Shown here one piece after another: positions 1 through 41,664 of a stretch of DNA of 45,478 nt. Each line of letters starts with the position of its first letter. Position 1 is the first letter of the stretch. The position numbers and the translations under genes were made by a program. A model generated the notes under the pieces. That model was not told the origin of the DNA. It searched no databases and worked only from the letters and a program-made list of their open reading frames with translations. The stretch is from Pirellulales bacterium (GTDB taxonomy: Bacteria > Planctomycetota > Planctomycetia > Pirellulales > JALHPA01), in contig JANRLT010000071.1 of assembly GCA_033762255.1 (NCBI GenBank), positions 1 through 45,478 on the forward strand, written 5' to 3'.

Positions 1-419
1 GCAATTCGTTGTGGCCAGAGCCAGGTTATTTCTTCGGGTTGAATGTCGGCCATGCAGCGTAAGACCGCCTGGGTTGTGGTCGGCTGTTGCTGGGGTGGAT
101 CATCATCCCGGGCGTGAGGGTTAAAAACAAAGTTAGGGTCGTCAATGTCCGGCAGGCGGGACTTAGGGGCATCGGCTTTGCTGGCCGCTTGGCGTGCAAG
201 GTCAATCAACCATCTGCCGTCCAGGTCTAATCCGTCGGTATCCTTGCAGCGTGCATCTATGACCAAACTGGCTAGGCAAGCTTGCTCCACAAACCGCATC
301 CGCTCGCGGGCGTTATCCAGGTCGATTGTGTCCACAAATACGGACTGGCGATTCTCAAAAATCTCAAGTCGGCGTTTGCCGATTCTATTTAACTTTCCCG
401 CTGTGACTGTGATATTCAT
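1..419 (-). CDS. RepA-like AAA ATPase, N-terminal part (runs off the window)
   Basis: The frame is open from the ATG at 419 to the window edge without a stop, giving 139 residues. The N-terminal 120 residues are poorly conserved in appearance and end in an acidic, Gln/Pro-rich linker. They are followed by the segment ADIQPEEITWLWPQRI. That segment (a conserved phrase with WLWP) precedes the Walker A loop in RepA-like/AAA_25 ATPases of phage and plasmid replication modules. The Walker A itself would lie just outside the window. The start codon overlaps the stop of the upstream small gene (ATGA), which supports both the start and co-translation. The likely role is a replicative helicase or primase-associated ATPase of an integrated element. 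Confidence 0.6.
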   Translation of the reverse strand, partial: MNITVTAGKLNRIGKRRLEIFENRQSVFVDTIDLDNARERMRFVEQACLASLVIDARCKDTDGLDLDGRWLIDLARQAASKADAPKSRLPDIDDPNFVFNPHARDDDPPQQQPTTTQAVLRCMADIQPEEITWLWPQRI

Positions 420-736
420 GCCACCACCCGCCGCCGCGTTGCGGTCTGTACGGGCATCGGGCCAACTGATATGGCCTGGGGCTGTTCCGCTGGCGTTTCC
501 GGCTCTTGGGTTGTCACAATGGCCCGTGCCAGGGCATGGGAATATCGCCGTAACTGACGCCATTCGGGTGGAAATTGACTCAATAGCAATTCAACCGCCG
601 CCTGTTCATCCCTTAGGGTTCCCACGCGATAGCGGGGTCTCACTGGCCCCTGCTGACCGCGTTCCCGGGCCAAGTCTTGGGCAGCTTCACGCAAAATTGC
701 GCGTGCCTCAATCTCTTGCAAATATGTGTTAAACAT
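416..736 (-). CDS. Small conserved-looking protein of the element, unknown function
   Basis: This 106-residue protein begins MFNTYLQEIEARAIL. The ATG at 736 is preferred over an upstream start because AAGGA lies about eight bases before it. The first half is charged and predicted to be helical (many Glu, Arg and Ala). The second half carries ELLLSQFPPEWRQL and a run of hydrophobic and Arg residues. Its stop codon overlaps the start of the RepA-like gene, so the two are probably translationally coupled. I do not recognise a family. Its place between the DNA-binding proteins and the ATPase suggests a replication or regulation accessory. Confidence 0.5.
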   Translation of the reverse strand: MFNTYLQEIEARAILREAAQDLARERGQQGPVRPRYRVGTLRDEQAAVELLLSQFPPEWRQLRRYSHALARAIVTTQEPETPAEQPQAISVGPMPVQTATRRRVVA

Positions 737-800
737 TCTATATTTCCTTGTGAAACGCGGCGGACGTGCGCTAACACGTCCACCGCTAAGAGAGGTAAGG

Positions 801-1106
801 TTACAGCGTCGCGGCCACGGGATCATTCCTGTGGCCGTCGGCGTTTGGGGAGAAAATCGCCGGGCATTGCTCTTGAGCCAGCTTGGCTAGCCAGTCCTTG
901 ATTACCGCGACGGGGAACATCCGGCATTTGCCAATTTTGGCATGGGGGATGACCCCGCGCTTGCACCAGCGTTCGATTGTCGCGGGGCTGACCGCAATCA
1001 GTTCGGCTAGATCGACGGCATCCACCGCCAGCTTTTCGCAATCAACGGCGTTGATCCGCGCTAAGTGCAGTTGCGGATCGCGGACTTGAGAGGGGGTAGC
1101 ATTCAT
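801..1106 (-). CDS. Excisionase-type helix-turn-helix DNA-binding protein
   Basis: This 101-residue protein has the start chosen at the ATG overlapping the stop of the preceding gene (ATGA). Residues about 22-65 form a MerR/excisionase-type winged helix: VDLAELIAVSPATIERWCKR, then a turn and IGKCRMFPVAVIKDWL, the pattern in which a helix-turn-helix is followed by a strand-turn reading and a final helix. Such proteins act as recombination directionality factors or local repressors. It sits directly downstream of a second protein of the same fold, an arrangement common in integrated elements. A longer reading from 1256 would overlap the upstream gene and is unlikely. Confidence 0.65.
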   Translation of the reverse strand: MNATPSQVRDPQLHLARINAVDCEKLAVDAVDLAELIAVSPATIERWCKRGVIPHAKIGKCRMFPVAVIKDWLAKLAQEQCPAIFSPNADGHRNDPVAATL

Positions 1107-1345
1107 CGCGCACCCCCTTTGTCCGCCGGGGTGTTCGCGGTTGCCTGGGTGTCGATCCAGGCTTGCAGTTTCGCGGGGCTGTAGAGCGTTCGCCGCCCCA
1201 CCCGTAGGCAGGGCAACTCCCCCTCTCGGGTCATTTGCCAGAGGGTTTTTGTGCAAATGCTAAGCATTCGCGCCGCTGTCTTGGAATCCACCAAGAGTGG
1301 GGGTTGTTCGGGGGCGGGGGATTGCTTGTAAATCGCAACTGCCAT
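1103..1345 (-). CDS. Excisionase family helix-turn-helix protein
   Basis: This 80-residue protein starts at the ATG at 1345, which has AGGTGA five bases upstream. An upstream in-frame start at 1411 lacks that support. The core LLVDSKTAARMLSICTKTLW is the classic excisionase/AlpA-like helix-turn-helix, followed by LPCLRVGRRTLYSPAKLQAW, the conserved wing with Arg-Val-Gly-Arg. This family binds element ends or promoters. It is probably the first gene of the operon that continues through the second excisionase-like protein. Function is assigned by fold; whether it controls excision or transcription cannot be told. Confidence 0.7.
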   Translation of the reverse strand: MAVAIYKQSPAPEQPPLLVDSKTAARMLSICTKTLWQMTREGELPCLRVGRRTLYSPAKLQAWIDTQATANTPADKGGAR

Positions 1346-1543
1346 CGGTTCACCTGGGGTTTGAGTGCCAGCCCTAAAAATGGGCCGATACTCCAAATCC
1401 CCTTGCGCCAACCGATTGCGCCAACCGTGCTTGAGAATGTGCGGGAGTGAAAGCGTAAATTACGGATTGAAAATTTCTAAAAATATTTTCGCTGACAACC
1501 GCGCGCCAACCGCGCCAACCAGTTTACAGCCTGATTTTAGGGA

Positions 1544-2914
1544 CTATTCGTCGCTGTCATCGCCGCCAACATAGGGATTGTTTCTTGCCCTATGATTTTG
1601 GGGACTGCGCATTTTATCTTTATGGACCTGTATTCGACGGCCTTGGTTTTCGTCATCTTTCCCCGCGCGATTTTTCATCCACCAATCCGTTTTGCCGATA
1701 GCCGATCGCGTTACCCCAAACGTATCCGCCAGGGTTTGCATAGTGATTTTGGCGGGGAATTTCAAAATCCTATCAATCGCCCACAGCTTTTGATCGACGG
1801 ATTTGCTTGTGTCGCTGGCAATCCGCTCAATTTCCACGTATTTGCCCTTGAGAATGCTCCCGCCATAGAGCATGGCAACTTTGGGCGTGCCGCTGGAATC
1901 GCTATCGAGGGGCTTAGGCGTGTTTGCCTCCAATCCTGGGTTGCTGGGGGAGTGCCCCGCAATCTCGTTCAACCCGCCCCAGGCTTGCTCAAAATCGCAG
2001 CGTAAAAGCGGCCAGTCCAGGCGTAACGTAACCCGTCGCTTATCGTCCAGAATCACATTCCGTAGCGTGTCAAATTCAGCCAAAAGCGTTTTCCACTCAT
2101 TCCCCCATTCCCTCATCAAACCCCGCAAATCCAATTCACTGACTGCCGCCCCGCACAGACGCTGAAACTCCCCCTGATCCATCCCCCCAAATGCCGCATA
2201 GTGGTCTGGCTTAGACTCCGTTGCCGGTTCCTTAATCCAGGCCCCAATCCGGTCAATTTCAGCTTTGAGAAAATCCAAAAATTGCCGTAGTGCTGGCGTT
2301 CCGTTCCGTTCCATTGTGGTTCCCTTTTCCCCCGCATCCCGGCCCGCGCTCGCCGCGCGCTCAATTTGCAGAATCCCGGCATAATTCGGCATTTCCCGAT
2401 ACGGCAGCAGCGATTTTCGCATGCCTTCCAGACAACGCTCCGCCGCCATCGCAGAGGACTGTAATTCAGCTTCCTTAGCGGAAACGTGCTCATTCCAGGC
2501 TGTCAATATGGCGGACGCCACCTGCGAAACCGCTTGATGGGCGGTCGCAAAGGTTTGGCCACCCAGCATGATGGGTTGTTGGCTGGCGGCCCGCATATCC
2601 AGGCAGGCGGTTTGAAAATGGGGCAGATTGCGGCTTTGTCTTAACTTCCCGGCCAAAGACGCTATGCCGGACTTGAGCCGCTCTAGTCGCGGGAATAATG
2701 GCTCGCTTTCCAATTCGTCGTCGATTTCCCGAAACGTGTTATCCCCCTGGGACTGATAATACTCCTGCACCTGGGCGTACTCGGGCAAATGCCGGTGAGA
2801 GGAGGGTTTTATGAAAAGTGCCTGCAAAAATGCGACATTACTGTGATTCAGCCAAAAATGCACTTGGGCAAATTCTGCAAAACTTCTTTCGGGGAACTGC
2901 TCACGCCAATCCAT
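1544..2914 (-). CDS. Unknown element protein with C-terminal helix-turn-helix
   Basis: The start is chosen at the ATG at 2914 (MDWREQFPERSF), because GGAGGAG lies four bases upstream, giving 456 residues. The reading frame stays open a further 49 codons upstream, but that stretch is Arg/Gly rich and unlikely to be translated. The protein is mostly charged and helical, with no transmembrane segment or nuclease motif that I can see. Residues about 385-430 contain KITMQTLADTFGVTRSAIGK, a plausible helix-turn-helix, followed by a basic tail. It lies upstream of the excisionase genes on the same strand, separated by about 200 bases. I do not recognise the family. Confidence 0.5.
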   Translation of the reverse strand: MDWREQFPERSFAEFAQVHFWLNHSNVAFLQALFIKPSSHRHLPEYAQVQEYYQSQGDNTFREIDDELESEPLFPRLERLKSGIASLAGKLRQSRNLPHFQTACLDMRAASQQPIMLGGQTFATAHQAVSQVASAILTAWNEHVSAKEAELQSSAMAAERCLEGMRKSLLPYREMPNYAGILQIERAASAGRDAGEKGTTMERNGTPALRQFLDFLKAEIDRIGAWIKEPATESKPDHYAAFGGMDQGEFQRLCGAAVSELDLRGLMREWGNEWKTLLAEFDTLRNVILDDKRRVTLRLDWPLLRCDFEQAWGGLNEIAGHSPSNPGLEANTPKPLDSDSSGTPKVAMLYGGSILKGKYVEIERIASDTSKSVDQKLWAIDRILKFPAKITMQTLADTFGVTRSAIGKTDWWMKNRAGKDDENQGRRIQVHKDKMRSPQNHRARNNPYVGGDDSDE

Positions 2915-3746
2915 GCGTCTCCTCCTTGGATATTGAGCGATAGTTGCGGAAATAGGCCCTAAATGGCCCCCGCACGGTCCATCAGCTAATTTTATCCCCC
3001 CAAAAATTTTAAGTACAGTCACCCAGCCTATCCCGCGCGCACGCGAGGGACGACCCGCCAAACCGCTAAAAACACCGTAAAATGCGGCATTTCATTTGAG
3101 AAGGGATTTTTAGGTTTAAGGCCCACGGCATCCCTGCGGTCACGGTTGAAAAAGTATTTAGTTCCCTGCATGGCCCAGTGTTGCCGAAAAAATGGCTATT
3201 ATCACGTCAGTTCAACTTTCCCCCCGTAGAAAAGGTGTAGGTTGAAACACGCTTCCCGCTAGGTTCCAAGAAATTCTAGGGGCTGGGGTCATCCGCCATC
3301 GCCACGCGGCTGAATGACTCAAAAATCCGCTGCCGCGGCAAAGGCCGCCTGTGGCCCTTGGTCCATTCCCGCCCTCACACTCTCTAGCTCTCTGCTTATC
3401 AGATCTCAAGGATTTACAACCTCATTGGCTTTTGACCCCCGATTCTAACTGGTACAGACACGAGTTAATGACGGCTCACGCGCAAATTCTATTTGGACGG
3501 AAGACCACCATGCCAGCTGATCTAGTTTAGAACTCTTGAAAAAACCTGATTGAAAAATTTACTAAACAAGGGAAAATTAATTACTTGAAAGAAGTGGAAA
3601 TTTTGATATATTTAGTGTGACTGCTTTCTGTCTCAATGTTAACGATATCGAAGCTGTGACAGCTCTTCTAGCGATTCTAAAGTTTCGTCGGCAGCTTGTA
3701 CGGGCAACTCCTTAAGTCGTTTTCGGAAACTTAAAAGGCAATAGTA
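2915..3746. other. Intergenic region between element module and defence operon
   Basis: About 830 bases separate the divergent minus-strand module and the plus-strand defence operon. Apart from a likely promoter near 3585-3612 I see no gene. A 33-codon reading from a GTG at 3616 to a TAA at 3714 exists in the leader but has no ribosome binding site and is not called. Confidence 0.5.
3585..3612 (+). promoter_or_regulatory. Candidate sigma-70-type promoter of the defence operon
   Basis: TTGAAA (3585-3590) and TATATT (3607-3612) are separated by 16 bases in an AT-rich stretch about 135 bases upstream of the first gene of the operon. This is a pattern match only. The long leader leaves room for post-transcriptional control. 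Confidence 0.35.
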
Positions 3747-4769
3747 GTGGGAACTTCAGTGAATAGAGATGTTACGACAGTCAAGTTGCACTTTGAAGAT
3801 TCTGGAGATTGGTACAGTCTACCGGAATGGGCAGAGTATTTTATCGGCATCGGAAAACAATTGGCTTGTGCTGATCAATTAGAAAGCAGGATTGTAACTG
3901 CAATTGTCGTTCCTACTCGTGCGTTCGGAGCAGCGTATGTGAGCCTTGGAATGGTTATAAGCGATGCGGCAGCACGTGATTCTTCATCCGCAGCAGCCCA
4001 CTTTGAAAATCTTCTCGCTCTTGCAGCAGGCACTCCTGTCATCTTCCGCCAAGGTCCTCGCAAGGTGCTAAAGGGCGTGTTGAAAGGAACGGAAGAGTAT
4101 AATGGTAATCTGCATGTTCGGGTGCAGGTACAGTCTAGAGATCCCCGGACTGGTGGCGGGCTAACATACCTGATTGACAAGTCGCGGGCACTCTTGGTAC
4201 AACCTGCTAAACATTCCGGTAAACTACCCAAGAAGCAGGGGGGTGAGAACAAACGGTTCGCCAATAGCTTCGTTGACACCCTCTTGGGCGATGCCGACCC
4301 GGTACAACTCGGTATACGATCAAAGCTTGTCTGCGCCATCGTGGGAAAGAAGAGTTCGCTTGAATATGAAATCCGTCACACACCCCTCGCCCTACATACC
4401 AATGGTAACTGCCAGGCTGAAGGACAATTGCAGGATGTGCTGCGAATAGATCGCTTCGTCAGTGGCGAGCAATCCTACCGCTCCGCGCTTGTACCCGTTG
4501 GCTCCAGTCCCCCATCTGGCGACGTTATCAGCAAGGTTGAGATCGGGGTTGTATTCGACGGTGCGGCTGGTTTCCTTAAATGGGGATCAATGTGGCCAGA
4601 CCGACACCAAGTCATCATACTTGATCGCACCGAACTATATTTCGACGATGCAATTACTGCCATCAATTGTCGGTTCTCGCAAAACCGTGCCGACGCCTCG
4701 TCACACCTGCCTGCCGAAGGCGCACTACCCGGTGGTGAAGTCCTCGTTTTTCGGGAGGCGATTCCATGA
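3747..4769 (+). CDS. Unknown protein opening the DISARM-like operon
   Basis: This 340-residue protein starts with GTG at 3747, with AAAGG about ten bases upstream. It has no signal peptide and no transmembrane helix. The sequence is a mix of beta-rich segments (for example LVCAIVGKKSSLEYEIRHTP and VISKVEIGVVFDGAAGFLKW) and a basic middle part (KLPKKQGGENKRF). No catalytic motif is visible. The stop overlaps the start of the next gene by ATGA, so the two products are likely made in fixed ratio and may act together. One possibility is that this and the following 528-residue protein correspond to a split version of the DrmE-type unknown subunit of class 2 DISARM; this is inference. Confidence 0.75.
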   Translation: MGTSVNRDVTTVKLHFEDSGDWYSLPEWAEYFIGIGKQLACADQLESRIVTAIVVPTRAFGAAYVSLGMVISDAAARDSSSAAAHFENLLALAAGTPVIFRQGPRKVLKGVLKGTEEYNGNLHVRVQVQSRDPRTGGGLTYLIDKSRALLVQPAKHSGKLPKKQGGENKRFANSFVDTLLGDADPVQLGIRSKLVCAIVGKKSSLEYEIRHTPLALHTNGNCQAEGQLQDVLRIDRFVSGEQSYRSALVPVGSSPPSGDVISKVEIGVVFDGAAGFLKWGSMWPDRHQVIILDRTELYFDDAITAINCRFSQNRADASSHLPAEGALPGGEVLVFREAIP

Positions 4770-6352
4770 ATTCCGTCTCCATCGGCAGAGCAACAATCGT
4801 TTACGAGACCGCTTCCAAGTGTGAGATCACACGTCATTGGGTAGATCATACGGGACTGGCAGATGTTTCACGAGATCTACGGACATTAGTTAAGTCACTT
4901 GGAGTAGACGCGGAAGACGAATTCTGGCAGCGGACTCTTGGCCCTGTCCGCCGCTTAGCGTTCGCATTCTGTTCTACACCGCTGCCGTTTGACCACGCCG
5001 CCTCAGCTTCATGCATCGAGTGGGACAAACTGCACCGACAGGTGCGGCTTTGCCAGCAACTGTTTCCCGATTCTCACGTAGCACTTGCAAGCCTTGTGGA
5101 GCAACTTCAAAGCCTATGCGAGGAGACTTGTTCCCCTTTTACCGAGAACTTAGAATCACTACACAACGCAAGTGGCGGTATATCGGTTATCCTCCGCAAT
5201 CCCCGAATGAACCAGGCTGTGGCCGCGTACTTTGCCACCAGTACTAGGCTCAGGAACGCCAGGGTGGTTAGTGCGAGACAGTTACGCGAAACGCAGTTCT
5301 GCAACTCCCTTGTCGCCATTGGCCCGTGCGGTTGGTTCCCAGAGTATGTGTTCTCTGCACCGCGTGCTTCGCACATCCATGTTGTGTCGTTCCGCTGGAT
5401 ACGCGATCCGTGGAAGCCGGGACCGGTATTTCTCAAGGCCGATGTTTCTGAAGGCGACAAAAACGGCAAACACTTTGTCGGAACAATGCCGCATATCAAG
5501 GGCCATGTTGCTCCACCCAGCCAGTCTATGACGGATATTCAACCATTGGACTTGCTCCCGCCCCTGCCGCCATTCGGCAAGGCGGGTTCGCGCATCCCAG
5601 GATGGCCCCCAAACACCAGTGTCGGTGATGAGACGCTACCAGCCCGGCTCTGCCACTTGAGCGGTGAACGTGCCGTCTTTGTATCGGCCGAGGAAGGTGC
5701 ATCCTCCCTCGTTATTGATTCATCAGAGACCGGCGATTCCACGGTAAGGCGCGTGCCCATTGATGAACTGGAGCCGGAACTGAGCTTACTCCTACGCACA
5801 TCTGGTGGAGGCGATTTCATTGCCCCGCTTGCAGACCGCATTCTCGGAGACCGTGCAGCAGAGCTGCGCACGCAACAGGCCGGATGGAAAGTCCGTTTGG
5901 TCGCCGCAGCGCAAGAGCAGTTTGGGGCACTCAACCGCCGCGAACTTGCAGCCCGCGTCGCAGTAAATCTTCGCTCGCATGGGCTTTCCGAAGCCCGCAC
6001 TGCGAATGTCCACTATTGGATGTCCTCTAAATGCATCCACCCGCGCAAGGAATCAGACTTTGCTGCGATACTTGTCTTCGTCGGTATGGCAGACAGAACG
6101 CGGGAACTGTGGGAAGCGATGTTAGAGATTGACCGGGCGCACAAGAGGGCGGGCCAGGCTATTCGGCAAATGCTTTTGCAGAAGATTGCAACATCATCCT
6201 TGGAACCGCTAGAAAGGGATGGTGAAATGGCGTTCGATCTCGGAGAGCAGGACGGTGGGACGCTTTCGGCGTTCCAGATCACGGCCATTTCGGAAGAGGA
6301 GTTCGAGGTTCCTTCCGACCGCATCGGCGTTCTATTAGATTCGGAGGAATAA
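4766..6352 (+). CDS. Unknown protein, possible DrmE-like DISARM subunit
   Basis: This 528-residue protein is cytosolic by appearance. The N-terminal half (1-250) shows alternating hydrophobic strands. The middle carries a Pro-rich stretch LLPPLPPFGKAGSRIPGW (263-280). The C-terminal part is the most distinctive: ADRILGDRAAELRTQQAGWK (356-375), a segment NVHYWMSSKCIHPRKESDFA (414-433), and EIDRAHKRAGQAIRQMLLQK (454-473). These look like a conserved helical DNA-associated or structural module and faintly recall the C-termini of DrmE-type proteins, but I cannot confirm the family. It is coupled to the preceding gene by a four-base overlap and lies two bases from the NERD-helicase gene, whose GTG has GGAGG in front of it. 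Confidence 0.7.
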   Translation: MNSVSIGRATIVYETASKCEITRHWVDHTGLADVSRDLRTLVKSLGVDAEDEFWQRTLGPVRRLAFAFCSTPLPFDHAASASCIEWDKLHRQVRLCQQLFPDSHVALASLVEQLQSLCEETCSPFTENLESLHNASGGISVILRNPRMNQAVAAYFATSTRLRNARVVSARQLRETQFCNSLVAIGPCGWFPEYVFSAPRASHIHVVSFRWIRDPWKPGPVFLKADVSEGDKNGKHFVGTMPHIKGHVAPPSQSMTDIQPLDLLPPLPPFGKAGSRIPGWPPNTSVGDETLPARLCHLSGERAVFVSAEEGASSLVIDSSETGDSTVRRVPIDELEPELSLLLRTSGGGDFIAPLADRILGDRAAELRTQQAGWKVRLVAAAQEQFGALNRRELAARVAVNLRSHGLSEARTANVHYWMSSKCIHPRKESDFAAILVFVGMADRTRELWEAMLEIDRAHKRAGQAIRQMLLQKIATSSLEPLERDGEMAFDLGEQDGGTLSAFQITAISEEEFEVPSDRIGVLLDSEE

Positions 6353-6354
6353 CC

Positions 6355-8085
6355 GTGGCCCGCATGATCCCTCCAACCATGGCTGCCTCCTGCCCCAGCC
6401 CTGGCGAGCAAGAGATATTCGCTAAGCTTAAGCAAGAAAATGCGGCACGGGAATGGATTGTACTTCACTCGCTAGACATTGCACAGCATCTGCGGCAGGT
6501 GTCTGGAGAGGCCGACTTTGTGATCATCGTTCCTGCAATCGGCGTGCTCTGCCTCGAAGTAAAGGCGTGCCGCTCACTCGACATCAAGGATGGGCTGTGG
6601 TTTTACGGCCATGATCCGAAGGGTGATCCACGCGGCCCATTCAAACAAGCATCCGAAGCGATGCACAGCCTCCGGCAACAGGTTATTCAAAGCGACGCAT
6701 CGCTTTCCCGAGTTCCGTTCTGGTCTGCTGTTGCGTTCCCGTATATCGAATTCAAGGTTGCATCCGGAGAGTGGCATCCGTGGCAGGTGATCGATTCGAC
6801 CCGCTTCAAACAGCAGCCGATGGCGACTCTGGTAGGCGGCATACTGCGCAGTGCGAGATCACATCTAAGTTTGCAGCCAACGGCCAAGTGGTTTCGCGAT
6901 AGCGACCGCATACCGGATAGCAAGCAGTCGGCCGCGATTGCCAGGATTCTCCGGCCGAATTTTGAATTCACCGAGAAGGCCAGTGATCGCCGCGCGCGCA
7001 AGCAAGCGGAAGTCATTCGCTACACCGAAGAGCAGTTCGTTGCGCTAGACACAATGGAGGATAACCCTCGCGTCCTCTTCACAGGTCCGGCAGGGACTGG
7101 CAAGACACTCCTCGCTTTGGAAATGGCACGCAGGGCAGCAAGCGCAGGGAAAAGTGTTCTGTTCGTGTGCTTCAACCGTTTGCTCGGCCGATGGCTGTCT
7201 TACCACCCTATAGTGCGCAGCGGCCAAATCGCGGCTGGAACACTCCACCAGTACATGGCGGGAATCGCCGACATCAAAGTGCCGGAGGGCGCGGACGAGT
7301 CATTTTGGAAGGCCGAGTTACCGGAAGCCGCCCTGTCGAAGCTGCTGGACGGGCACCGGGATGCTGCACGGTTCGATATGGTGGTTGCCGACGAAGTGCA
7401 GGACTTGCTCCACCCACAGTACCTCGACGTGCTGGAACTGGTACTCAAGGGTGAGCTTTCAGGCGGTTCGTGGCGAATGTTCGGCGACTTCGAGCGACAG
7501 ATGCTCTACGGGCAAGACCGCGAACTAGCCGAAGAATTGATCCGCAAGCGGTTAGGGTCGTTTGCTAGAGGAGCGCTCCGCGTGAATTGCCGAAACACCC
7601 CTCGCGTTGCGACACTATCCCAGCTCCTCGGCCGCCTCAGACCGAATTACTTGCGCATTCTCCGCCCCGATGACAACATCGAGCCAGCTATTAACTACTA
7701 CGCCACACCATCACAGCAGCGCAAGGAAATCAGCAATACGCTTGAACGACTTTTCAAAGACTCCTACAGCGGCGATGACATTATTGTCCTTTCGCCGAAG
7801 GCCGGGCAGCGGTGCGCGGCGGCTGGTGTGACAGAGAAGCCTTGGTGCGACCAGCTAGCTCCCTTCGAGACGGCTGCGCCCGGCAAGATTCGTTATACGA
7901 CCATTCAGAGTTTCAAAGGACTAGACGCTCCAGCCATCGTCGTTACCGACGTCGAGCACCTTGATGGCGACACGTTCTCGTCGCTTTTCTACGTTGCGAC
8001 AACGCGCGCGCTAGAGCGACTCAACATCATCGTGCATGAGACGGTCAAGCCTGACATCATTCATTCGCTGCTCGGCAGCAGATAA
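6355..8085 (+). CDS. NERD-domain nuclease fused to UvrD/Rep-type superfamily 1 helicase
   Basis: This is a 576-residue protein. Residues 14-130 form a NERD (nuclease-related) domain: G51-E52-A53-D54 followed by LCLEVKA with E68 and K70, the D...ExK arrangement of the PD-(D/E)XK nuclease fold. Residues 235-570 are a superfamily 1 helicase: Walker A GPAGTGKT (244-251), Walker B DMVVADEVQD (341-350), motif III around MFGDFERQ (375-382), QSFKGLDA (518-525) and YVATTRA (546-552). The GTG start has GGAGG eight bases upstream. A nuclease-helicase of this kind could process or unwind phage DNA. It sits inside the DISARM-like operon where canonical systems have a phospholipase-D protein elsewhere in the operon. 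Confidence 0.88.
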   Translation: MARMIPPTMAASCPSPGEQEIFAKLKQENAAREWIVLHSLDIAQHLRQVSGEADFVIIVPAIGVLCLEVKACRSLDIKDGLWFYGHDPKGDPRGPFKQASEAMHSLRQQVIQSDASLSRVPFWSAVAFPYIEFKVASGEWHPWQVIDSTRFKQQPMATLVGGILRSARSHLSLQPTAKWFRDSDRIPDSKQSAAIARILRPNFEFTEKASDRRARKQAEVIRYTEEQFVALDTMEDNPRVLFTGPAGTGKTLLALEMARRAASAGKSVLFVCFNRLLGRWLSYHPIVRSGQIAAGTLHQYMAGIADIKVPEGADESFWKAELPEAALSKLLDGHRDAARFDMVVADEVQDLLHPQYLDVLELVLKGELSGGSWRMFGDFERQMLYGQDRELAEELIRKRLGSFARGALRVNCRNTPRVATLSQLLGRLRPNYLRILRPDDNIEPAINYYATPSQQRKEISNTLERLFKDSYSGDDIIVLSPKAGQRCAAAGVTEKPWCDQLAPFETAAPGKIRYTTIQSFKGLDAPAIVVTDVEHLDGDTFSSLFYVATTRALERLNIIVHETVKPDIIHSLLGSR

Positions 8086-8105
8086 GAGTAAAGGGGGAGC
8101 AACCG

Positions 8106-11100
8106 GTGCAAAATATTGAGAATCGTGATGCTGTGCTGCGGGCGCTCCGCGAGGAACTGGTCGGGCCATACCCGCTCGGGCAGGAAATAGACTGCGCACA
8201 GGCGATACAACTGGACGACGCCGAGGCTGCGTACCGGCCACACCGCCAGCTCGGTTCCGGTGAGGAGATTCTCCAGCGGGATTCTCCTACGAAGCGTTAC
8301 GGCGTTGGTGTTCTGTATCCGATGGAGGCACCAGTCGCGCCCGACGAGCTTGATTCTCAGTTACCTCCACCCGATGAAGAAGCTGAACCCGCGCCGCCGG
8401 AAAATGCCAGAGAGCCGCTCGCACCTTCTGCCGTGCATGACTGCGAGACGATTGCGGCGCGTGCTGAATATCGTCTCCCGGAGGCCGATTCAGACGACTT
8501 CGACCTCTCATCTGCCAATACATACAAACCGAGCAGCATGGCTGTGAGCCTACTGGTACATCTGCCACGAGGAGCTGTACTCGAAGTCGTGGCAAGTGGC
8601 GGCCGTTATCGGCTCTTGCCAGTAATGCTCACCGGGCGCGAAAGAGAGTGGTGGCTACGTTCGCTCGTCAGACTCGCGAGCAATTTCCACCGCGAAGATT
8701 TCCCCGCAGCAAATGCCTACGTCAATGCTCGCGATCCGGTGCGAGAAAATGTCGCAGACCTTGACGTGCGAATCGAAGTCTTCGCAAGGCCTTACCAGTC
8801 TCACCCAGACGAGTATCTCATCACAGTGTGCCTGGTCAACCGCGAGCCAGCTGGTGGCAGGCTGGATTTGCAGTCCTTGTTCCAGTCTCGGATAGAGGTC
8901 CGTTTGAAACCCGGCTCTGCCGGAACCATTCTGCCATACCCGACGGCTGAGCCGCTGGACAGCGATGAGCGCTCGCAGGAGCTGCTGTACCGAGACAAGC
9001 TCACTTTTGCAGTAGGCCACGGGTGCGCGGCTGACTGGACTCGCAGCGCCCCAACCTCCGCTGAAAGCGTCACCGCCGAATGTCTGCCAGTCTTTGAAAC
9101 ACCGAGCACAACGCCAGACATCCGCTCAAGCAGCGGCCAGCCGCTTATCGCTTCCATGCGAATTTTGGCAGGAATTGAACAAGGCTCCGATGGCACCGAA
9201 CAACTTGAGGCCATTGTCAGCGAGTACGAAGCATGGATCACGGTGCAGCGCGGGCGCATCCCAAGCCTGAACGCGCGATTGCGAGAAACCGCCGAAGCCC
9301 ACATGGAGCAATGCTCGGAAGCAGCCCGGCGGATGCGCGATGGATTGTCACTACTTGCAAGTGACCCGCAAATCCGCCGCGCCTTCCAGCTTGCCAACCT
9401 CGCAATGGTTACTCAACAAGTGCGGTCGAGGCGAGAGGCCCGCACTGCCACATTCGACCAGGAAGCCTCGATACTTCAATTTGCCGAACCTTATGAGCCG
9501 CTCGACCTAAACTCTGTGCGTGCGCGCGGAAGCCAGTGGAGAGCTTTCCAGATCGCATTCATTCTCGCATCTCTCCGTTCCACGGCGGACGCATCAGATG
9601 CCGACCGCGAGCGGGTCGAACTTATCTGGTTTCCTACCGGCGGTGGCAAAACTGAAGCGTACCTCGGGTTAGCCGCGTTTAGCATCTTCCTTCGTAGATT
9701 GCGCAACCCAGCAGATACCGGACTGCAAACACTGATGAGGTACACGCTCCGTCTCCTAACCGCACAGCAGTTTCAGCGTGCCTCAAGACTGATTTGCGCA
9801 ATGGAATACGTCCGGCGGCAACATGCCGAGGAATTGGGCGAGGCAGAAATCTCTACGGGCATTTGGCTTGGCGGTTCCACTACTCCAAATTCTCGGGACG
9901 AAGCCCGCTCTGTACTCCGCAGCCTGCGAAGTGGAGACGGGCGAGAACAGAACAGATTTGTTTTGGATCGATGCCCGTGGTGCGGTGCCGAGATGGGGCC
10001 GGTTAACCTCACCGCTGGCCGTGGGCGCGGTCGCCGGAGCAGTATTCCCCGCGTCATTGGCTACGAGTCCCGCAACAATACCGTCGTCTATGCCTGTCCC
10101 GACCGACACTGCGAATTCCACAGGTTGCTCCCGCTATATGTCATCGACGAAGACATTTATGAGAAGCGCCCTGATCTTGTCATCGGCACGGTTGACAAGT
10201 TCGCTATGCTCGCTTGGAAGCCGCAGGCGCGCTCACTGTTCGGCATTGCCGAAGATGGGACGAGAGCCTCCTCGCCGCCCGGCCTCATAATTCAGGACGA
10301 ACTGCATCTCATTTCTGGCCCGCTCGGGTCGATGGTCGGCCTCTATGAGCCGATTATCGAGGAATTGTGTACCGATAGGCGGGGACAACACGCAGCTAAA
10401 CCAAAGATCGTGAGTTCTACGGCAACCATCCGCAACTTTGTCGAACAGGTGCAGGGCCTGTATGCGAGGGACCGAACGAGCCTGTTTCCACCGTCCGGAT
10501 TGGATGCCGACGACTCGTTCTTTGCGAGAGTCGCACGGCGGCCCGACGGCACTCTTGAACGCGGCCGTATCTACGTCGGCGTCCATGCTCCCGGTCTTGG
10601 TTCGCTCCAAACGGTGCAAGTACGAACATTTTCGGCCTTGCTCCAGGCCCCCCAAACGATGTCGGCTGCCGACCGCGATCCGTGGTGGACGCTATTGCTC
10701 TTCTTCAACAGCTTACGCGAACTCGGGACAACGCTCACGCTGTTCCAGTCTGACATTCCAGTTTTGCTCAAAGGTGCGCTCAGGCAGCGCCTTGGCATCA
10801 ACTTCCAGGATGTGCGGCAACTCAGAAAGATACTTGAACTGACGGGCCGCCTGCCGGGCGACGAGGTGCCAAAAGCCATTTCCGCCCTCGAAATCCCGAC
10901 CGTCTCGCAGCAAGGGCAACCTGTCGATGTCTGCCTGGCATCCAACATCATCGAAGTAGGGGTCGATATTGACCGGCTTTCGATGATGGCAGTTGTCGGC
11001 CAGCCGAAAACAACATCCCAATACATTCAGGTGACGGGGCGCGTCGGCCGCAAATCGGATCGGCCTGGCCTGGTCGTGACAATCTACACCGCGTCGAAAC

Positions 11101-11600
11101 CCCGCGACCGCTCGCATTTCGAGAAGTTCCGCAGTTATCACGAGCGGTTGTACGCGCAGGTGGAACCGACAAGCGTTACTCCATTTTCCCGGCCAGCACT
11201 GGACCGAGCCGCCCATGCCGTCATTGCAAGCTATGTGCGGCAACTCGGTGACTCCGATCAAGCCGAAAGCCCTTACCCATTTCCGGCAACTTTGGTTGCC
11301 GCCGTGTCGCATATCCTCGAACAGCGCGCAGCTTACGTTGATCCCGATGAACTTGTGGCGCTTCGCAGGATCATCCAACGGCGTGTTGATGAGTGGCAGA
11401 GGTGGCAGAGAACACAATGGGATCGCGGGCAAAATACAGAGAACATGCCTCTATTGAGGCCATCCGGCGCTTATGTGACGCCGGAAAAATCTAGGGTCTC
11501 ATGGGAGACACCGCAGTCTTTGCGAAACGTGGACGCCGAATGCCAGGCCGAAATCACGCAACTCTACATTCTCGGAGAAGAGGAGGCTGGCGATGCCTAG
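8106..11600 (+). CDS. drmA: DrmA-type DISARM helicase
   Basis: This 1164-residue protein has a superfamily 2 helicase C-terminal to a 480-residue N-terminal region. Visible motifs are Walker A PTGGGKTEA (510-518), LRLLTAQQFQRA (548-559), DELHLISGP (731-739) as the DEAD-box equivalent, SSTATIRN (770-777), and motifs V and VI in ASNIIEVGVDID (945-956) and QVTGRVGRK (975-983). Two Cys pairs, C623/C626 and C664/C669, suggest a zinc site inserted in the helicase. This is the composition of DrmA, the helicase that with DrmB forms the core of DISARM and blocks incoming phage DNA. GTG start with GGGGGAG upstream; the stop overlaps the drmB start by eight bases. Confidence 0.85.
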   Translation: MQNIENRDAVLRALREELVGPYPLGQEIDCAQAIQLDDAEAAYRPHRQLGSGEEILQRDSPTKRYGVGVLYPMEAPVAPDELDSQLPPPDEEAEPAPPENAREPLAPSAVHDCETIAARAEYRLPEADSDDFDLSSANTYKPSSMAVSLLVHLPRGAVLEVVASGGRYRLLPVMLTGREREWWLRSLVRLASNFHREDFPAANAYVNARDPVRENVADLDVRIEVFARPYQSHPDEYLITVCLVNREPAGGRLDLQSLFQSRIEVRLKPGSAGTILPYPTAEPLDSDERSQELLYRDKLTFAVGHGCAADWTRSAPTSAESVTAECLPVFETPSTTPDIRSSSGQPLIASMRILAGIEQGSDGTEQLEAIVSEYEAWITVQRGRIPSLNARLRETAEAHMEQCSEAARRMRDGLSLLASDPQIRRAFQLANLAMVTQQVRSRREARTATFDQEASILQFAEPYEPLDLNSVRARGSQWRAFQIAFILASLRSTADASDADRERVELIWFPTGGGKTEAYLGLAAFSIFLRRLRNPADTGLQTLMRYTLRLLTAQQFQRASRLICAMEYVRRQHAEELGEAEISTGIWLGGSTTPNSRDEARSVLRSLRSGDGREQNRFVLDRCPWCGAEMGPVNLTAGRGRGRRSSIPRVIGYESRNNTVVYACPDRHCEFHRLLPLYVIDEDIYEKRPDLVIGTVDKFAMLAWKPQARSLFGIAEDGTRASSPPGLIIQDELHLISGPLGSMVGLYEPIIEELCTDRRGQHAAKPKIVSSTATIRNFVEQVQGLYARDRTSLFPPSGLDADDSFFARVARRPDGTLERGRIYVGVHAPGLGSLQTVQVRTFSALLQAPQTMSAADRDPWWTLLLFFNSLRELGTTLTLFQSDIPVLLKGALRQRLGINFQDVRQLRKILELTGRLPGDEVPKAISALEIPTVSQQGQPVDVCLASNIIEVGVDIDRLSMMAVVGQPKTTSQYIQVTGRVGRKSDRPGLVVTIYTASKPRDRSHFEKFRSYHERLYAQVEPTSVTPFSRPALDRAAHAVIASYVRQLGDSDQAESPYPFPATLVAAVSHILEQRAAYVDPDELVALRRIIQRRVDEWQRWQRTQWDRGQNTENMPLLRPSGAYVTPEKSRVSWETPQSLRNVDAECQAEITQLYILGEEEAGDA

Positions 11601-13476
11601 AAGACCAGTACGCCGCGGCCAACTCATCTCACCGTTCGGCCCCGGCGCGATGATGATTCTGCCTGATGGCGTCTCCGTGATCTGCGGTGGACTAGACCAC
11701 TGGTTCAAGCACGAAACCGGCGGCACAGAGAACATCGACCAGCGGGAGTACCAAGTCGATGAATGGCGGCTTGCTGCGCGCCTCAATGTCGGGCATTTCT
11801 ATCTGCCACCCGACCACCGGCGGGTGCGTCGCCCCGCTCCCCCGACCAACGGCTACCTCACTGTGCCGTTTCTGCGGTTCCCGCAGTGGCATTACTGCAC
11901 TCGTTGCGGGTTGATGCGCAAGGTGCCACTCGTGACCAAAGGGCGGATCAAATGCGCGGAATGCGAGGCCCGTGGATGGACAAGGTACATTGTCCAGGTT
12001 CCCTTTGTCGCCATGTGCGATGCGGGCCATCTCCAGGACTTCCCGTGGGTCGAGTGGGTATATGAGACCGCAAATCCGCCGCAGAACCAGCTTCCAATGC
12101 GGCTCGTTTCGACAGGCGGCATGACACTCGCGGGACAAAAAGTGAAGGTCGATGGCGGCCCTGAGCGGACGCTGGCAGGTATCACCAATGCCAGCCCGGA
12201 CGGCAACGATACGGACCTGAGCCGCCTGCTTGACAACAGCCGAACGCCCTACCTTTGCCCCGGCCACCGCCCGTGGCTCGGTACCGAGGAAGGTGAAGGT
12301 TGCGGCAGGCCATTAAGGGGAACCCTCCGCAGTGCCGCCAACGTCTATTTCGCACAAATCCACAACTCGATTTACCTCCCACGCAGTGACGACACGACCG
12401 TGGCAGAGGCCATCTCGCTGCTTGAACAACCGCCGCTGAGCACCTTTCTATCCATTTTCACCAGTGCTGGTGGAAGCCCAACGCCAGCACAGCTTCGGCA
12501 ACTGTATAGGGAACTCGTTAGCACATTCACTGACCGCCAGCTTGAGCAAGCCATCGCGACCGTGTGCGGCGGTGGTGGGAGACAACAACAGCAGCAAACA
12601 GCCGGTGACGATGCCGAAACCGGATTCAGGCGGCAAGAATACGATACATTGGTCGCGGCCGCAGATTTCGACCAACTCGTGCTCAGTCCCGCAGATCTCA
12701 GACAATACGCGCCTGACTTTTCACGTTTCTTCTCGCATATCACGCTCGTCCACAAACTAAGGGAAACGCGGGCACTTACTGGCTTTACGCGAGTCTTTGC
12801 CGATACTGACCGCGATCTCGCTAGCCAGCAGGCCATGCTCCGACTCGACCCGCCAGATGAAATGTGGCTGCCGGCCTACATGGTCTTTGGAGAAGGCATT
12901 TTCTTAACTCTCGATGAGCATCGCTTGCGGCAGTGGGAAGCGCAGCAGGACATTCAAGACCGCGTTGCACCGCTACTTGCCAGGTACTTGGCTCTCAGGC
13001 AGGCGCGCCATCTGCGCGACCGCCACATTGGTCCCCGATACATCCTCCTGCATACGCTGGCACACTTACTCATCAACCGCCTAACTTATGAATGCGGCTA
13101 CAGTTCCGCTGCGCTCAGGGAGAGATTATACGTGTCGGAGAATTCCGCCGCTCCGATGGCGGGCATTCTAATCTACACTGCTGCCGGCGATGCCGAGGGT
13201 ACGCTCGGAGGGCTGGTGCGAATGGGCAGGCCGGGGAAGTTGGAACCGCTCCTGGACCGCGCGCTTACAGGAGCGCAGTGGTGTTCTGCCGATCCAGTGT
13301 GCATGGAAATGGGCCAAAGCGGCGGGCAAGGTCCCGACTCCATGAACCTTGCTGCCTGCCACGGCTGCTGTCTGGTCCCGGAAACCGCCTGCGAAGAATT
13401 TAACCGACTGCTCGACCGCGGGCTTCTTATCGGCCCCTTCAGCAACCTCGTTATCGGATTCTTCAATCGAGCCTAG
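11593..13476 (+). CDS. drmB: DrmB-type DUF1998 protein
   Basis: This 627-residue protein overlaps the helicase gene by eight bases and has GAGGAGG upstream of its ATG. The N-terminus (RRGQLISPFGPGAM) is typical of DrmB. A Cys cluster, C102/C105 and C121/C124 followed by C142xxGH, suggests a zinc site. The C-terminal third carries the DUF1998 signature: ILLHTLAHLLINRLTYECGY followed by AGILIYTAAGDAEGTLGGLV and a Cys-rich end (C-x2-D-P-x-C and ACHGCC). A Gln-rich low-complexity stretch lies near residue 330. In DISARM, DrmB partners with DrmA in a DNA-binding complex. Confidence 0.87.
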   Translation: MPRRPVRRGQLISPFGPGAMMILPDGVSVICGGLDHWFKHETGGTENIDQREYQVDEWRLAARLNVGHFYLPPDHRRVRRPAPPTNGYLTVPFLRFPQWHYCTRCGLMRKVPLVTKGRIKCAECEARGWTRYIVQVPFVAMCDAGHLQDFPWVEWVYETANPPQNQLPMRLVSTGGMTLAGQKVKVDGGPERTLAGITNASPDGNDTDLSRLLDNSRTPYLCPGHRPWLGTEEGEGCGRPLRGTLRSAANVYFAQIHNSIYLPRSDDTTVAEAISLLEQPPLSTFLSIFTSAGGSPTPAQLRQLYRELVSTFTDRQLEQAIATVCGGGGRQQQQQTAGDDAETGFRRQEYDTLVAAADFDQLVLSPADLRQYAPDFSRFFSHITLVHKLRETRALTGFTRVFADTDRDLASQQAMLRLDPPDEMWLPAYMVFGEGIFLTLDEHRLRQWEAQQDIQDRVAPLLARYLALRQARHLRDRHIGPRYILLHTLAHLLINRLTYECGYSSAALRERLYVSENSAAPMAGILIYTAAGDAEGTLGGLVRMGRPGKLEPLLDRALTGAQWCSADPVCMEMGQSGGQGPDSMNLAACHGCCLVPETACEEFNRLLDRGLLIGPFSNLVIGFFNRA

Positions 13477-13485
13477 GAGGGCTAG

Positions 13486-14598
13486 ATGATAATTCCAATT
13501 TTGTCCTTTTTTACTGGAGGAGGTTTCTTCGATCTCGGGTTCAAGCAGGCGGGGTTTGCGATCTGCTGGACTAATGAGAATTGTCCGGCGTTTGTCGAGG
13601 GTTACGCGCACGGTATGTCCGCATGGCTATCATCCTTTAAAAAGACACAAACTACTAAGGCGGATATCTCGAACACCAGCAGCATCTGCGACCTATCCGC
13701 GAGGAAGGTGCTCAACGAGGCATTCGATAGCCCGCTCCCCGATGTCTTCGGCATAATCGGCGGCCCACCCTGCCCGGACTTCAGTAACGGCGGCACCCAT
13801 GCCGGGGGTAATGGAATCAACGGCCAACTTACGACAACCTTTGTGGACATGATCTGCGGCATCAAGCCATCGTTTTTCGTCATAGAGAATGTGGCTGGCC
13901 TCTACCGCTTCCACAAGCACCGTAAGTTTTTGCACAAGAAGATTTACCAGTTACAAGAGAATGGCTACGCCGTGGATTACAGAATTCTGAATGCCCTTGA
14001 ATTCGGAGTGCCACAGGACCGAGAAAGGATTTTTGTTGTCGGTTTCAAGCGCCCACTTGCGCAGAAAGCACTGGGACGAAAGTTGACGGCGGATGAACGG
14101 GAGTGGTTCGTGTGGCCTGAGAATGATACCTACAAAGGGGCCAAGTCTCTGCCCTGGCCGAGGGTCTCGCCGTTTGGCAAGGAGCCGAGTTTGCCTGACG
14201 ACCTCCCCATCGAACTCACCGTTTTCCCGGCACTGCTCGGCAATGGCGACCCAGAGAAAGTTGCGAATGGCTGCGATTTCTTCAATCCTTACTCCGACAA
14301 GTTCAAGCAGGTGAAGGAAGGAGATGTGTCCCGCAAGTCATTCAAGAGGCTGCACCGCTACCGGTTTAGCCCGACTGCATGGTATGGCAATCAAGAAGTT
14401 CACCTACACCCATGGAAGGCACGCCGATTATCAGTTCGTGAAGCCCTGCGAATCCAGACGGTTCCGGATGAATACGTCTTGCCATCAGACATGACCCTTT
14501 CCGCAAAATTCAAAATGACATGCAATGGAGTTCCTTGTATAATGGCAAATCATCTTGCATCAATGGTCCAGATTTTTTTGGAAAACGCGATCAAGTGA
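13486..14598 (+). CDS. drmMII: C5-cytosine DNA methyltransferase, DrmMII-like
   Basis: This 370-residue protein has the conserved C5-methyltransferase motifs: motif I LSFFTGGGFFDLGF (6-19), motif IV GGPPCPDFS with catalytic C96, motif VI ENV (134-136), and motif VIII QDRERIFVVGF (177-187). Motifs IX and X appear in RRLSVREALRIQ and NHLASMV near the C-terminus. The target recognition region between about 190 and 310 is short. AGGAGG precedes the ATG, nine bases after the drmB stop. In class 2 DISARM the cytosine methyltransferase marks host DNA so that the DrmAB machinery spares it. The recognition sequence cannot be read from the protein. Confidence 0.9.
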   Translation: MIIPILSFFTGGGFFDLGFKQAGFAICWTNENCPAFVEGYAHGMSAWLSSFKKTQTTKADISNTSSICDLSARKVLNEAFDSPLPDVFGIIGGPPCPDFSNGGTHAGGNGINGQLTTTFVDMICGIKPSFFVIENVAGLYRFHKHRKFLHKKIYQLQENGYAVDYRILNALEFGVPQDRERIFVVGFKRPLAQKALGRKLTADEREWFVWPENDTYKGAKSLPWPRVSPFGKEPSLPDDLPIELTVFPALLGNGDPEKVANGCDFFNPYSDKFKQVKEGDVSRKSFKRLHRYRFSPTAWYGNQEVHLHPWKARRLSVREALRIQTVPDEYVLPSDMTLSAKFKMTCNGVPCIMANHLASMVQIFLENAIK

Positions 14599-35494: not shown

Positions 35495-35857
35495 GGGACC
35501 AGCTTTCAATGTTGTCGCGCACGGGGGAGACAAGAGTGCAGGGAGTCGCCAGCAGAGGTTGAAAAGTCTCCCGCGAGAGGTTTTCACCCATTTTTCGCGG
35601 GAAATGCTGGCAATTCCGGGCAAATACGATGGCAGAGTCGAATTTGCCATCTTAGTTAATTTTTCCGTCCAGGGCAACGATTGGGCAAGCGACTAAATAT
35701 AAAGATGAGGTAATACACGTAATGAGAATTTTTATATAAATCGGCTATACAGTACATATTGCTAACGCAAGTATACTCAATTTCCTTACCCGACTAGACT
35801 ATGGTACACAGGGATGGCAAATTGGCGCAATTGCCGGGGTGTGCTGTGGTGTATTGA
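35495..35857. other. Intergenic, nothing recognised
   Basis: This is the upstream region of the large dockerin protein. The reading frame is open further upstream on the minus strand, to a TTG at 35677, but it lacks a convincing start. AT-rich DNA at 35690-35800 may hold promoters. Confidence 0.4.
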
Positions 35858-40461: not shown

Positions 40462-41664
40462 ATGGCAAAAAAATCCCCACCCGCAAATCGCCCCCGCAAA
40501 GCAGCGGGGACCAAGCGCGGCGCGGCGCGCGAAACCGCCGCGTCCGCCCGCAAAACACCTGTCACCCTGAGCAAGCGGGATACCGCCACCATGGGCCAGA
40601 TTCGCTCGTTGGCGGATGGCGTCGTCACCGCCGCCGAAAAGCGCCGCGAACCGCACCTGGATGTGCCGTCGCGCACATTATCCAACGTCAAATACAACAA
40701 GAGCCGCCGCTTTCTCGAGATGGGCTCCGCCACCAACCGCCGCCAGCTCTTTAACCTCAATCAGGCCAAAATTTATATGCAGTCCCTGCTGATCGCCAAG
40801 GGGAGCAAAAACCTGATCCAAGAGGGAAAAACGACCAGCCTGCGGGGGCTGTATTACATGCTCAAACACACCATCGCCGACACCAAGGAAGAAACTTTTA
40901 ACGATCAATCGGAATCCGACACCATCATCGAGGATATGGAAGTCACGCTCAACGCCCTGCGCGAGGAACTGCACCTGTACGCGCAAAAGCGCGGCGAAAT
41001 GGTGGGTAACATCGTCGTCACGGACAAAGGGGACGACATCGACTGCGCGCGAATGGGTTCCGGCGGTTACGGCATACCCAGCATCGTGGAGCCGGACGTG
41101 ATTCAATTCAAAAAGTGCGATGCCAAGTTTATCCTGCATGTGGAAAAAGACACCGTCTGGCAGCGCTTTAACGAGGATAAATTTTGGAAAAAACATGGCT
41201 GCATCCTTACACACGGCGCGGGACAACCCCCCCGCGGCGTCCGCCGAATGCTCTATCGCCTGCACAACGAGCTGAAACTCCCGATTTATTGCGTGCTGGA
41301 TAACGACCCCTGGGGGTATTACATTTACAGCGTCATCAAGCAAGGCTCCATCAATTTAGCGTACGAAAGCAAACGGATGGCCATTCCCGAGGCGCGGTTC
41401 CTGGGCCTGCGCTCCAGCGACTTTGAACGCTGCAAGTTGTCCAACAGCGTCAAAATTAATTTGAACGACCAGGACACCAAACGGGCCAAGCAAATCGCCA
41501 ACTATCCCTGGTTCAAGGATAAAAAGCCGTGGCAAAAAGAGATCGAACTGATGTTAAAAAACGGCTTTAAACTGGAAGTGGAGTCCCTCATTAGCAAGGA
41601 CATTAGCTACGTAACTGAAACTTACGTCCCCGAACGCCTGGAGGAACAAGAGTGGCTGGACTGA
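40462..41664 (+). CDS. top6A: DNA topoisomerase VI subunit A (Spo11-like)
   Basis: This 400-residue protein is the catalytic A subunit of type IIB topoisomerase. A basic, disordered N-terminus (1-60) is followed by a winged-helix domain with TTSLRGLYYMLKHT, where Y131 or Y132 is the candidate nucleophile. The Toprim domain follows: FILHVEKD (E228) and YCVLDNDPWGYYI (D280-N-D282, the DxD metal site), then SKRMAIPEARFLGLRSSDFE. The family normally works as an A2B2 complex that relaxes or decatenates DNA. No B subunit gene is in this window. It is common in archaea and scattered in bacteria, including planctomycetes. Confidence 0.9.
   Translation: MAKKSPPANRPRKAAGTKRGAARETAASARKTPVTLSKRDTATMGQIRSLADGVVTAAEKRREPHLDVPSRTLSNVKYNKSRRFLEMGSATNRRQLFNLNQAKIYMQSLLIAKGSKNLIQEGKTTSLRGLYYMLKHTIADTKEETFNDQSESDTIIEDMEVTLNALREELHLYAQKRGEMVGNIVVTDKGDDIDCARMGSGGYGIPSIVEPDVIQFKKCDAKFILHVEKDTVWQRFNEDKFWKKHGCILTHGAGQPPRGVRRMLYRLHNELKLPIYCVLDNDPWGYYIYSVIKQGSINLAYESKRMAIPEARFLGLRSSDFERCKLSNSVKINLNDQDTKRAKQIANYPWFKDKKPWQKEIELMLKNGFKLEVESLISKDISYVTETYVPERLEEQEWLD

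What the first reader, a model, noticed from the sequence alone, without database searches (positions are those of the whole stretch)
3747..14598. DISARM-like operon without DrmC but with a NERD-nuclease/UvrD helicase
Six genes are tightly coupled (4- and 8-base overlaps or short gaps, each with a strong ribosome site) and include DrmA, DrmB and a DrmMII-like cytosine methyltransferase. The canonical class 2 DISARM set (drmE, drmA, drmB, drmC, drmMII) has a phospholipase-D DrmC. No such HxKxxxxD protein is visible here. Instead, a NERD-type nuclease fused to a superfamily 1 helicase sits upstream of drmA. This could be a DISARM subtype with a different effector or processing factor. The loss of DrmC and the replacement idea are inference; the gene content is direct.
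Basis: partly seen in the sequence, partly recalled or inferred. Interest (0 to 1): 0.8.

Follow-up and report, generated by a model that had tools for sequence, protein, structure and literature searches.

The report
DISARM variant with a nuclease-helicase
This six-gene bacterial cluster is a version of the DISARM anti-phage system in which the usual phospholipase-type nuclease gene is missing and a nuclease-helicase fusion sits in the operon instead, a pairing conserved across several phyla that may explain how DISARM systems without DrmC destroy phage DNA.

Summary
Window 3747-14598 encodes six tightly coupled genes: two unnamed ORFs, a NERD nuclease fused to an SF1 helicase, DrmA, DrmB and a cytosine-5 methyltransferase. 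No DrmC (PLD) gene is present; the genome's only PLD protein found is a two-domain one on another contig.

ORF2 is the C-terminal half of DrmE; ORF1 is probably its N-terminal half, so DrmE is split. The same order recurs in other Planctomycetota, Thermodesulfobacteriota, Actinomycetota and Deinococcota. Loci found independently with the DrmE model also carry the NERD-helicase between DrmE and DrmA.

In 42 DrmA loci sampled without regard to partners, the NERD-helicase occurs in 9, DrmC in 16, both in none. On the DrmA tree the two partners fall mostly in separate lineages. So this is a lineage of DISARM, not one operon that lost a gene.

Nuclease and helicase motifs are intact. Best reading: DrmAB recognises phage DNA, the methyltransferase marks self, and the NERD-helicase is the dedicated nuclease (inferred). 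I found no description of this in the papers searchable here. No function was tested.

The parts
3747..4769 (+). Gene 1 (340 aa): probable N-terminal half of a split DrmE, with a small Tudor/CarD-like barrel at residues ~87-159
   Evidence: Length, position and end-to-end alignment of gene 1 + gene 2 with full-length DrmE; in-register profile match E=0.0012 with a bridge sequence; barrel. Suggested, not proven.
4766..6352 (+). Gene 2 (528 aa): C-terminal half of DrmE; residues ~10-235 predicted as a RecA2-like SF2 helicase domain with helical insert, no recognisable ATPase motifs
   Evidence: NCBIfam DrmE 710-837 E=2e-5; Nostoc ortholog 392-802 E=1.9e-18; hhalign 467 columns E=3e-17; fold matches Z 9-10.
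6355..8085 (+). Gene 3 (576 aa): NERD nuclease (aa 16-129) fused to a UvrD-type SF1 helicase
   Evidence: Pfam NERD 8.9e-12, UvrD_C_2 1.9e-7; E52, D54, E68, K70, Q98, GxxGxGKT (K250), DE (346-347) and R551 invariant in 13 homologs.
8106..11600 (+). Gene 4 (1164 aa): DrmA, YprA-family SF2 helicase of DISARM
   Evidence: PADLOC 3e-213, PDB 7s9v 8e-143; PTGGGKT, DELH, QVTGRVGR motifs.
11593..13476 (+). Gene 5 (627 aa): DrmB, DUF1998/MZB zinc protein
   Evidence: NCBIfam DrmB_fam 419 bits, over cut-off; MZB and conserved cysteines.
13486..14598 (+). Gene 6 (370 aa): cytosine-5 DNA methyltransferase
   Evidence: Pfam DNA_methylase 1.1e-47; GPPC, ENV, QDRER motifs; best PADLOC DruM2 435 bits.

Best explanation
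A DISARM anti-phage system of the DrmE-bearing (class 2) side, with DrmE split into two genes and a NERD-nuclease/SF1-helicase instead of DrmC. Proposed action: DrmAB loads on phage DNA with exposed single-stranded ends, as solved for Serratia DISARM (PMC9142583), and is the recogniser and translocase. The methyltransferase marks host DNA. DrmE, with a helicase-like fold and no recognisable ATPase motif, acts as a scaffold or clamp. The NERD-helicase is the dedicated nuclease: its SF1 motor moves on DNA opened by DrmAB and the NERD domain cuts it. Shown here: gene content, conservation, DrmE identity of gene 2, intact motifs, co-occurrence with DrmE, and no overlap with DrmC. Inferred: N-half identity of gene 1, complex formation, nuclease activity, substrate and antiphage function.
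For: DrmA, DrmB and C5 methyltransferase by curated models. Gene 2 is DrmE. Same order in other phyla. Six loci found with the DrmE model alone all have the NERD-helicase right after DrmE. In 42 partner-blind DrmA loci: NERD-helicase 9, DrmC 16, both 0 (p=0.008); 7 of the 9 also have DrmE (p=4e-5). Separate placement on the DrmA tree. NERD and SF1 catalytic residues invariant. Purifying selection on every gene.
Against: Cyanobacterial relatives have genes 1 and 2, DrmA and DrmB without the NERD-helicase, and in L013 it is a pseudogene while the other five genes are intact, so it may be dispensable. The co-occurrence tests ignore shared ancestry. Gene 1 as DrmE N-half rests on weak profile scores. 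No experiment.
Confidence: 0.62

Rival explanations
1. DISARM that simply works without DrmC: DrmAB alone blocks phage replication or host nucleases finish the job, and the NERD-helicase is an optional accessory.
For: DrmC is dispensable and often missing, and recruitment of host PLD nucleases has been proposed (PMC9142583). Relatives without the NERD-helicase exist and L013 has a pseudogene.
Against: The NERD-helicase is kept in the same place with intact catalytic residues across phyla and evolves under constraint like its neighbours.
Confidence: 0.2
2. The NERD-helicase is an independent defence gene that travels with DISARM but acts alone, like other nuclease-helicase fusions.
For: NERD-helicase models exist for other systems, such as RTasNERD-Hel, and a relative sits next to a Druantia-type helicase in Leisingera. 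Thermomicrobium has one without DrmA nearby.
Against: Fixed position between DrmE and DrmA with 2-20 base spacing across phyla; DISARM and Druantia partners are both YprA-family helicases, which hints at a functional pairing.
Confidence: 0.08
3. Genes 1 and 2 are not a split DrmE but a new sensor pair; only the C-terminal domain of gene 2 is shared with DrmE.
For: Direct profile match of gene 1 to DrmE is weak (E=0.035); the window's gene 2 is below the curated DrmE cut-off.
Against: Gene 2 aligns to DrmE over 467 columns, not only the C-terminal domain; joined as protein, genes 1 and 2 match DrmE in length and order; the barrel hinted at by the DrmE model lies at the same place in gene 1.
Confidence: 0.1

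Closest known systems
Class 2 DISARM (drmE, drmA, drmB, drmC, drmMII)
   Same: DrmA, DrmB, DrmE (as two genes) and a cytosine methyltransferase in one operon.
   Different: No DrmC; DrmE split; a NERD-SF1 nuclease-helicase between DrmE and DrmA; methyltransferase closer to DruM2 models.
Class 1 DISARM (drmD, drmMI, drmA, drmB, drmC)
   Same: DrmA and DrmB core.
   Different: No DrmD, DrmMI or DrmC; DrmA lies in another part of the tree.
TALON, ARMADA and Druantia (YprA-family systems, PMC12458937)
   Same: YprA-family helicase; TALON also has a NERD nuclease.
   Different: Here DrmA and DrmB are separate DISARM-type proteins; no TPR-CSD or TBP genes; the NERD is fused to an SF1 helicase.
NERD-SF1 helicases (RTasNERD-Hel; Nhi as a functional analogue)
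   Same: RTasNERD-Hel: same architecture over the full length, 86 bits.
   Different: No reverse transcriptase partner; it sits inside a DISARM operon. Nhi gives only 23 bits, over the helicase part.

Membership tests
DISARM (core) | DrmA helicase | tested here: met
   PADLOC 3e-213, PDB DrmA 8e-143; NCBIfam 893 bits, slightly under its cut-off of 950
DISARM (core) | DrmB (DUF1998), encoded separately from DrmA | tested here: met
   NCBIfam 419 bits, cut-off 240
DISARM (core) | DNA methyltransferase in the operon | tested here: met
   C5 methylase, Pfam 1.1e-47
DISARM (core) | Anti-phage activity | not testable with these tools
   Needs phage challenge
Class 2 DISARM | DrmE | tested here: met
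   C-half by gene 2; N-half by gene 1 only suggested
Class 2 DISARM | DrmC (PLD), required by PADLOC for type II (PMC9252829) | tested here: not met
   No PLD gene in the operon; only a two-PLD-domain protein elsewhere in the genome
Class 2 DISARM | DrmMII methyltransferase | tested here: inconclusive
   A C5 methylase, but DruM2 435 bits against DrmMII 97 bits
Class 1 DISARM | DrmD and DrmMI | tested here: not met
   Neither in the operon; DrmA outside the class 1 clade
TALON | ARMADA-like YprA helicase with NERD nuclease, TPR-CSD and TBP genes | tested here: not met
   DISARM-type DrmA, no such genes in the operon
NERD-SF1 helicase family | N-terminal NERD with E..D..ExK..Q core plus SF1 motifs | tested here: met

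The most novel reading that the evidence does not exclude
A whole DrmE-bearing lineage of DISARM uses a NERD-SF1 nuclease-helicase as its dedicated nuclease, and pairing of a YprA-family helicase with a NERD-helicase is a general module that recurs in Druantia-type loci. DrmE is itself a helicase-like protein with a degenerate ATPase and a Tudor/CarD-like barrel.
Probability: 0.45. Interest if true: 0.72.

Novelty: new variant of a known kind. Interest (0 to 1): 0.6.

Why it matters
The DISARM structural paper calls it a mystery how phage DNA is degraded when DrmC is dispensable and often missing (PMC9142583). A conserved nuclease-helicase gene inside the operon, not found together with DrmC in any of 57 loci examined, is a concrete and testable candidate for that nuclease. 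PADLOC's type II DISARM rule, which requires DrmC, would miss these systems, and its DrmE models did not match three full-length DrmE proteins tested. The predicted helicase-like fold also gives a first hint of what DrmE is.

Tried and rejected
DrmC hidden elsewhere in the genome: only a two-PLD-domain protein on another contig. Operon in viral contigs: none found. Full-length DrmE in plasmids by tblastn: none. PDB sequence search with DrmE or the NERD-helicase: no match. PADLOC scan of genes 1 and 2: no match, but PADLOC's DrmE models also missed three full-length DrmE proteins, so that silence means little. Direct profile comparison of gene 1 with the DrmE N-half: too weak alone (E=0.035), 0.0012 with the Priestia bridge. 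Gene 1 structure model: low confidence (pLDDT 46), only the small barrel is usable, and Z under 8 shows no more than a common fold class. Ofir et al. 2018, which defined DISARM, is not in the paper library. Literature searches for NERD with DISARM gave only TALON and lists of shared domains. Promoter and terminator scan: no more sites than expected by chance. No tRNA in the window.

Full report
WHAT IS THERE. The window is one whole contig of a 5.47 Mb genome, 96.6% complete, in the same class as a Planctomycetales genome that carries the same operon. Six + strand genes run from 3747 to 14598 with 4 and 8 base overlaps and gaps of 2, 20 and 9 bases; genes 2-6 have strong Shine-Dalgarno sequences. 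Gene 4 is DrmA (PADLOC 3e-213; PDB DrmA 7s9v 8e-143), gene 5 DrmB (NCBIfam 419 bits), gene 6 a cytosine-5 methyltransferase (Pfam 1.1e-47) closest to DruM2 models rather than DrmMII, and gene 3 a NERD nuclease fused to a UvrD-type SF1 helicase. Acidic, proline-rich residues ~72-128 of DrmA lie directly before the point that aligns to Serratia DrmA residue 222, which is inside the published trigger loop (176-232, PMC9142583); that they are equivalent is inference.

GENES 1 AND 2 ARE A SPLIT DrmE. Gene 2 matches the end of the NCBI DrmE model (710-837 of 838, E=2e-5); its Nostoc ortholog matches 392-802 (E=1.9e-18); profile-profile alignment covers 467 columns at E=3e-17. Gene 1 has the length and place of the missing N-half. 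Joined as protein, genes 1 and 2 align end to end with full-length DrmE. The direct profile match of gene 1 is weak (0.035; 0.0012 with a Priestia bridge sequence, in register). An independent hint agrees: the DrmE model picks up the CarD/TRCF RID region of an Mfd protein with its positions 49-121, and the only confident part of the gene 1 model, residues ~87-159, resembles the UvrD Tudor, Mfd RID and CarD barrels. The same split, with a 4-base overlap, is seen in Deinococcus and Nostoc plasmid4. Gene 2 residues ~10-235 are predicted as a second RecA domain with a helical insert, as in RIG-I, MDA5 and Hef (Z 9-10). Reading the alignments, I see no P-loop in gene 1 and no arginine-rich motif VI in gene 2. 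So DrmE is probably a degenerate helicase-like protein; this is inference from a model.

NO DrmC. None of the six genes is PLD-like. In the whole genome the PLD search found one protein with two PLD domains on another contig, unlike single-domain DrmC.

IT IS A CONSERVED SYSTEM. The exact six-gene order recurs in L009 and L010 (Planctomycetota) and L014 (Desulfobacteraceae); contigs L011 and L012, cut short, start the same way. Genes 1-5 recur on Rhodococcus opacus pROB02 (its gene 1 start is annotated late, the longer frame scores 278 bits against the family profile) and on a Deinococcus psychrotolerans plasmid. Nostoc relatives have genes 1 and 2, DrmA and DrmB but no NERD-helicase between them. 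In L013 the NERD-helicase is a pseudogene with stops and a large deletion, while the other five genes are intact. pN/pS for the window genes against three relatives is 0.10-0.34.

INDEPENDENT LOCI. Searches with the NCBI DrmE model alone in three phyla gave, besides weak or broken hits, six loci (L048-L053), each with the NERD-helicase directly after DrmE; five run on to DrmA and DrmB without DrmC, one is cut by the contig end. L094, found through DrmA, has methyltransferase, DrmE, NERD-helicase, DrmA and DrmB in that order.

ASSOCIATION. In 57 DrmA loci of all origins the NERD-helicase is in 15, DrmC in 16, both in none (p=0.0055). In the 42 loci from genomes found by DrmA searches in three phyla, blind to partners, the counts are 9, 16 and 0 (p=0.008), and 7 of the 9 NERD-helicase loci also have DrmE (p=4e-5). 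These tests ignore shared ancestry. The DrmA tree (quick method) puts 15 of the 16 DrmC loci in one clade of 24 and 13 of the 15 NERD-helicase loci in another group of 21 (support 89, drawn open); L027 and L099 lie outside it. L020 was counted as lacking the NERD-helicase only because the plasmid record is cut there. A locus with the published class 2 layout DrmE-DrmA-DrmB-DrmC (L097) is on a long, deep branch. The NERD-helicase is thus a lineage feature and not a recent swap; the ancestral state is not resolved.

HOW IT LIKELY WORKS. Published work shows that DrmAB binds DNA with single-stranded 5' ends, that its ATPase is needed, and that DrmC is dispensable, leaving the nuclease unknown (PMC9142583). 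Here NERD residues E52, D54, E68, K70 and Q98 and the main SF1 residues are invariant in 13 homologs. I propose that the methyltransferase marks self, DrmAB loads on phage DNA, DrmE scaffolds, and the NERD-helicase degrades the DNA. Only content, conservation and motifs are shown. The cases without a NERD-helicase argue that the operon can persist without it.

KNOWN OR NEW. Closest is class 2 DISARM, but DrmC, which PADLOC requires for type II (PMC9252829), was tested and is not met, so I file it as DISARM (DrmA, DrmB and methyltransferase met; DrmE met by its C-half) of a new variant. TALON has a NERD nuclease with a different YprA helicase (PMC12458937). In Leisingera a related NERD-helicase sits beside a Druantia-type helicase (DruE1 model, 1528 bits) and a weakly DruD-like gene; Paracoccus has a 2052-aa helicase in the same position. 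I found no paper linking a NERD-helicase to DISARM, but the library holds only open-access texts and not Ofir et al. 2018.

Noticed in passing
L010:19882-21471: The methyltransferase is followed by an HhH-GPD glycosylase (weak PADLOC match to a type II nicking enzyme) and a NO VEIN C-terminal protein (PADLOC PDC-S36, 352 bits); neither is present after the window's methyltransferase.
   Followed up: partly
L104:1713-10728; L102:1843-10669: NERD-helicase directly after a ~2050-2094-aa helicase (Druantia-type DruE1 model in Leisingera, 1528 bits), with an SNF2 helicase gene on the other strand in Leisingera: the same partner with another YprA-family system.
   Followed up: partly
L013:11586-12150: NERD-helicase reduced to a pseudogene (stops, large deletion) inside an otherwise intact operon: a natural deletion.
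   Followed up: partly
L021:6488-8959: Priestia plasmid pN447-3.2: the DrmE region is three consecutive ORFs (330, 206, 278 aa) before DrmA and DrmB; the third matches DrmE 580-837.
   Followed up: partly
L022:4321-20976: Tsukamurella plasmid: methyltransferase, a RelA/SpoT-like protein and a UvrD helicase stand before DrmA, DrmB and class 1-type helicase and methyltransferase genes.
   Followed up: no
G549:C335 and G549:C54: DrmE and NERD-helicase at the end of a 20,978-base contig and DrmA at its start, as if circular, with DrmA hits of identical scores on a second contig.
   Followed up: no
window 416-3061, - strand: Two small HTH_17 (excisionase-like) proteins and a 505-aa protein without Pfam match just upstream of the operon; possible edge of a mobile element.
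   Followed up: partly
window 40462-41664: Topoisomerase VI subunit A (Spo11-like) gene in a bacterial genome.
   Followed up: partly
window 30695-35677, - strand: 1660-aa protein that by eye carries an endonuclease/exonuclease/phosphatase-like stretch among repeated extracellular-type domains.
   Followed up: no
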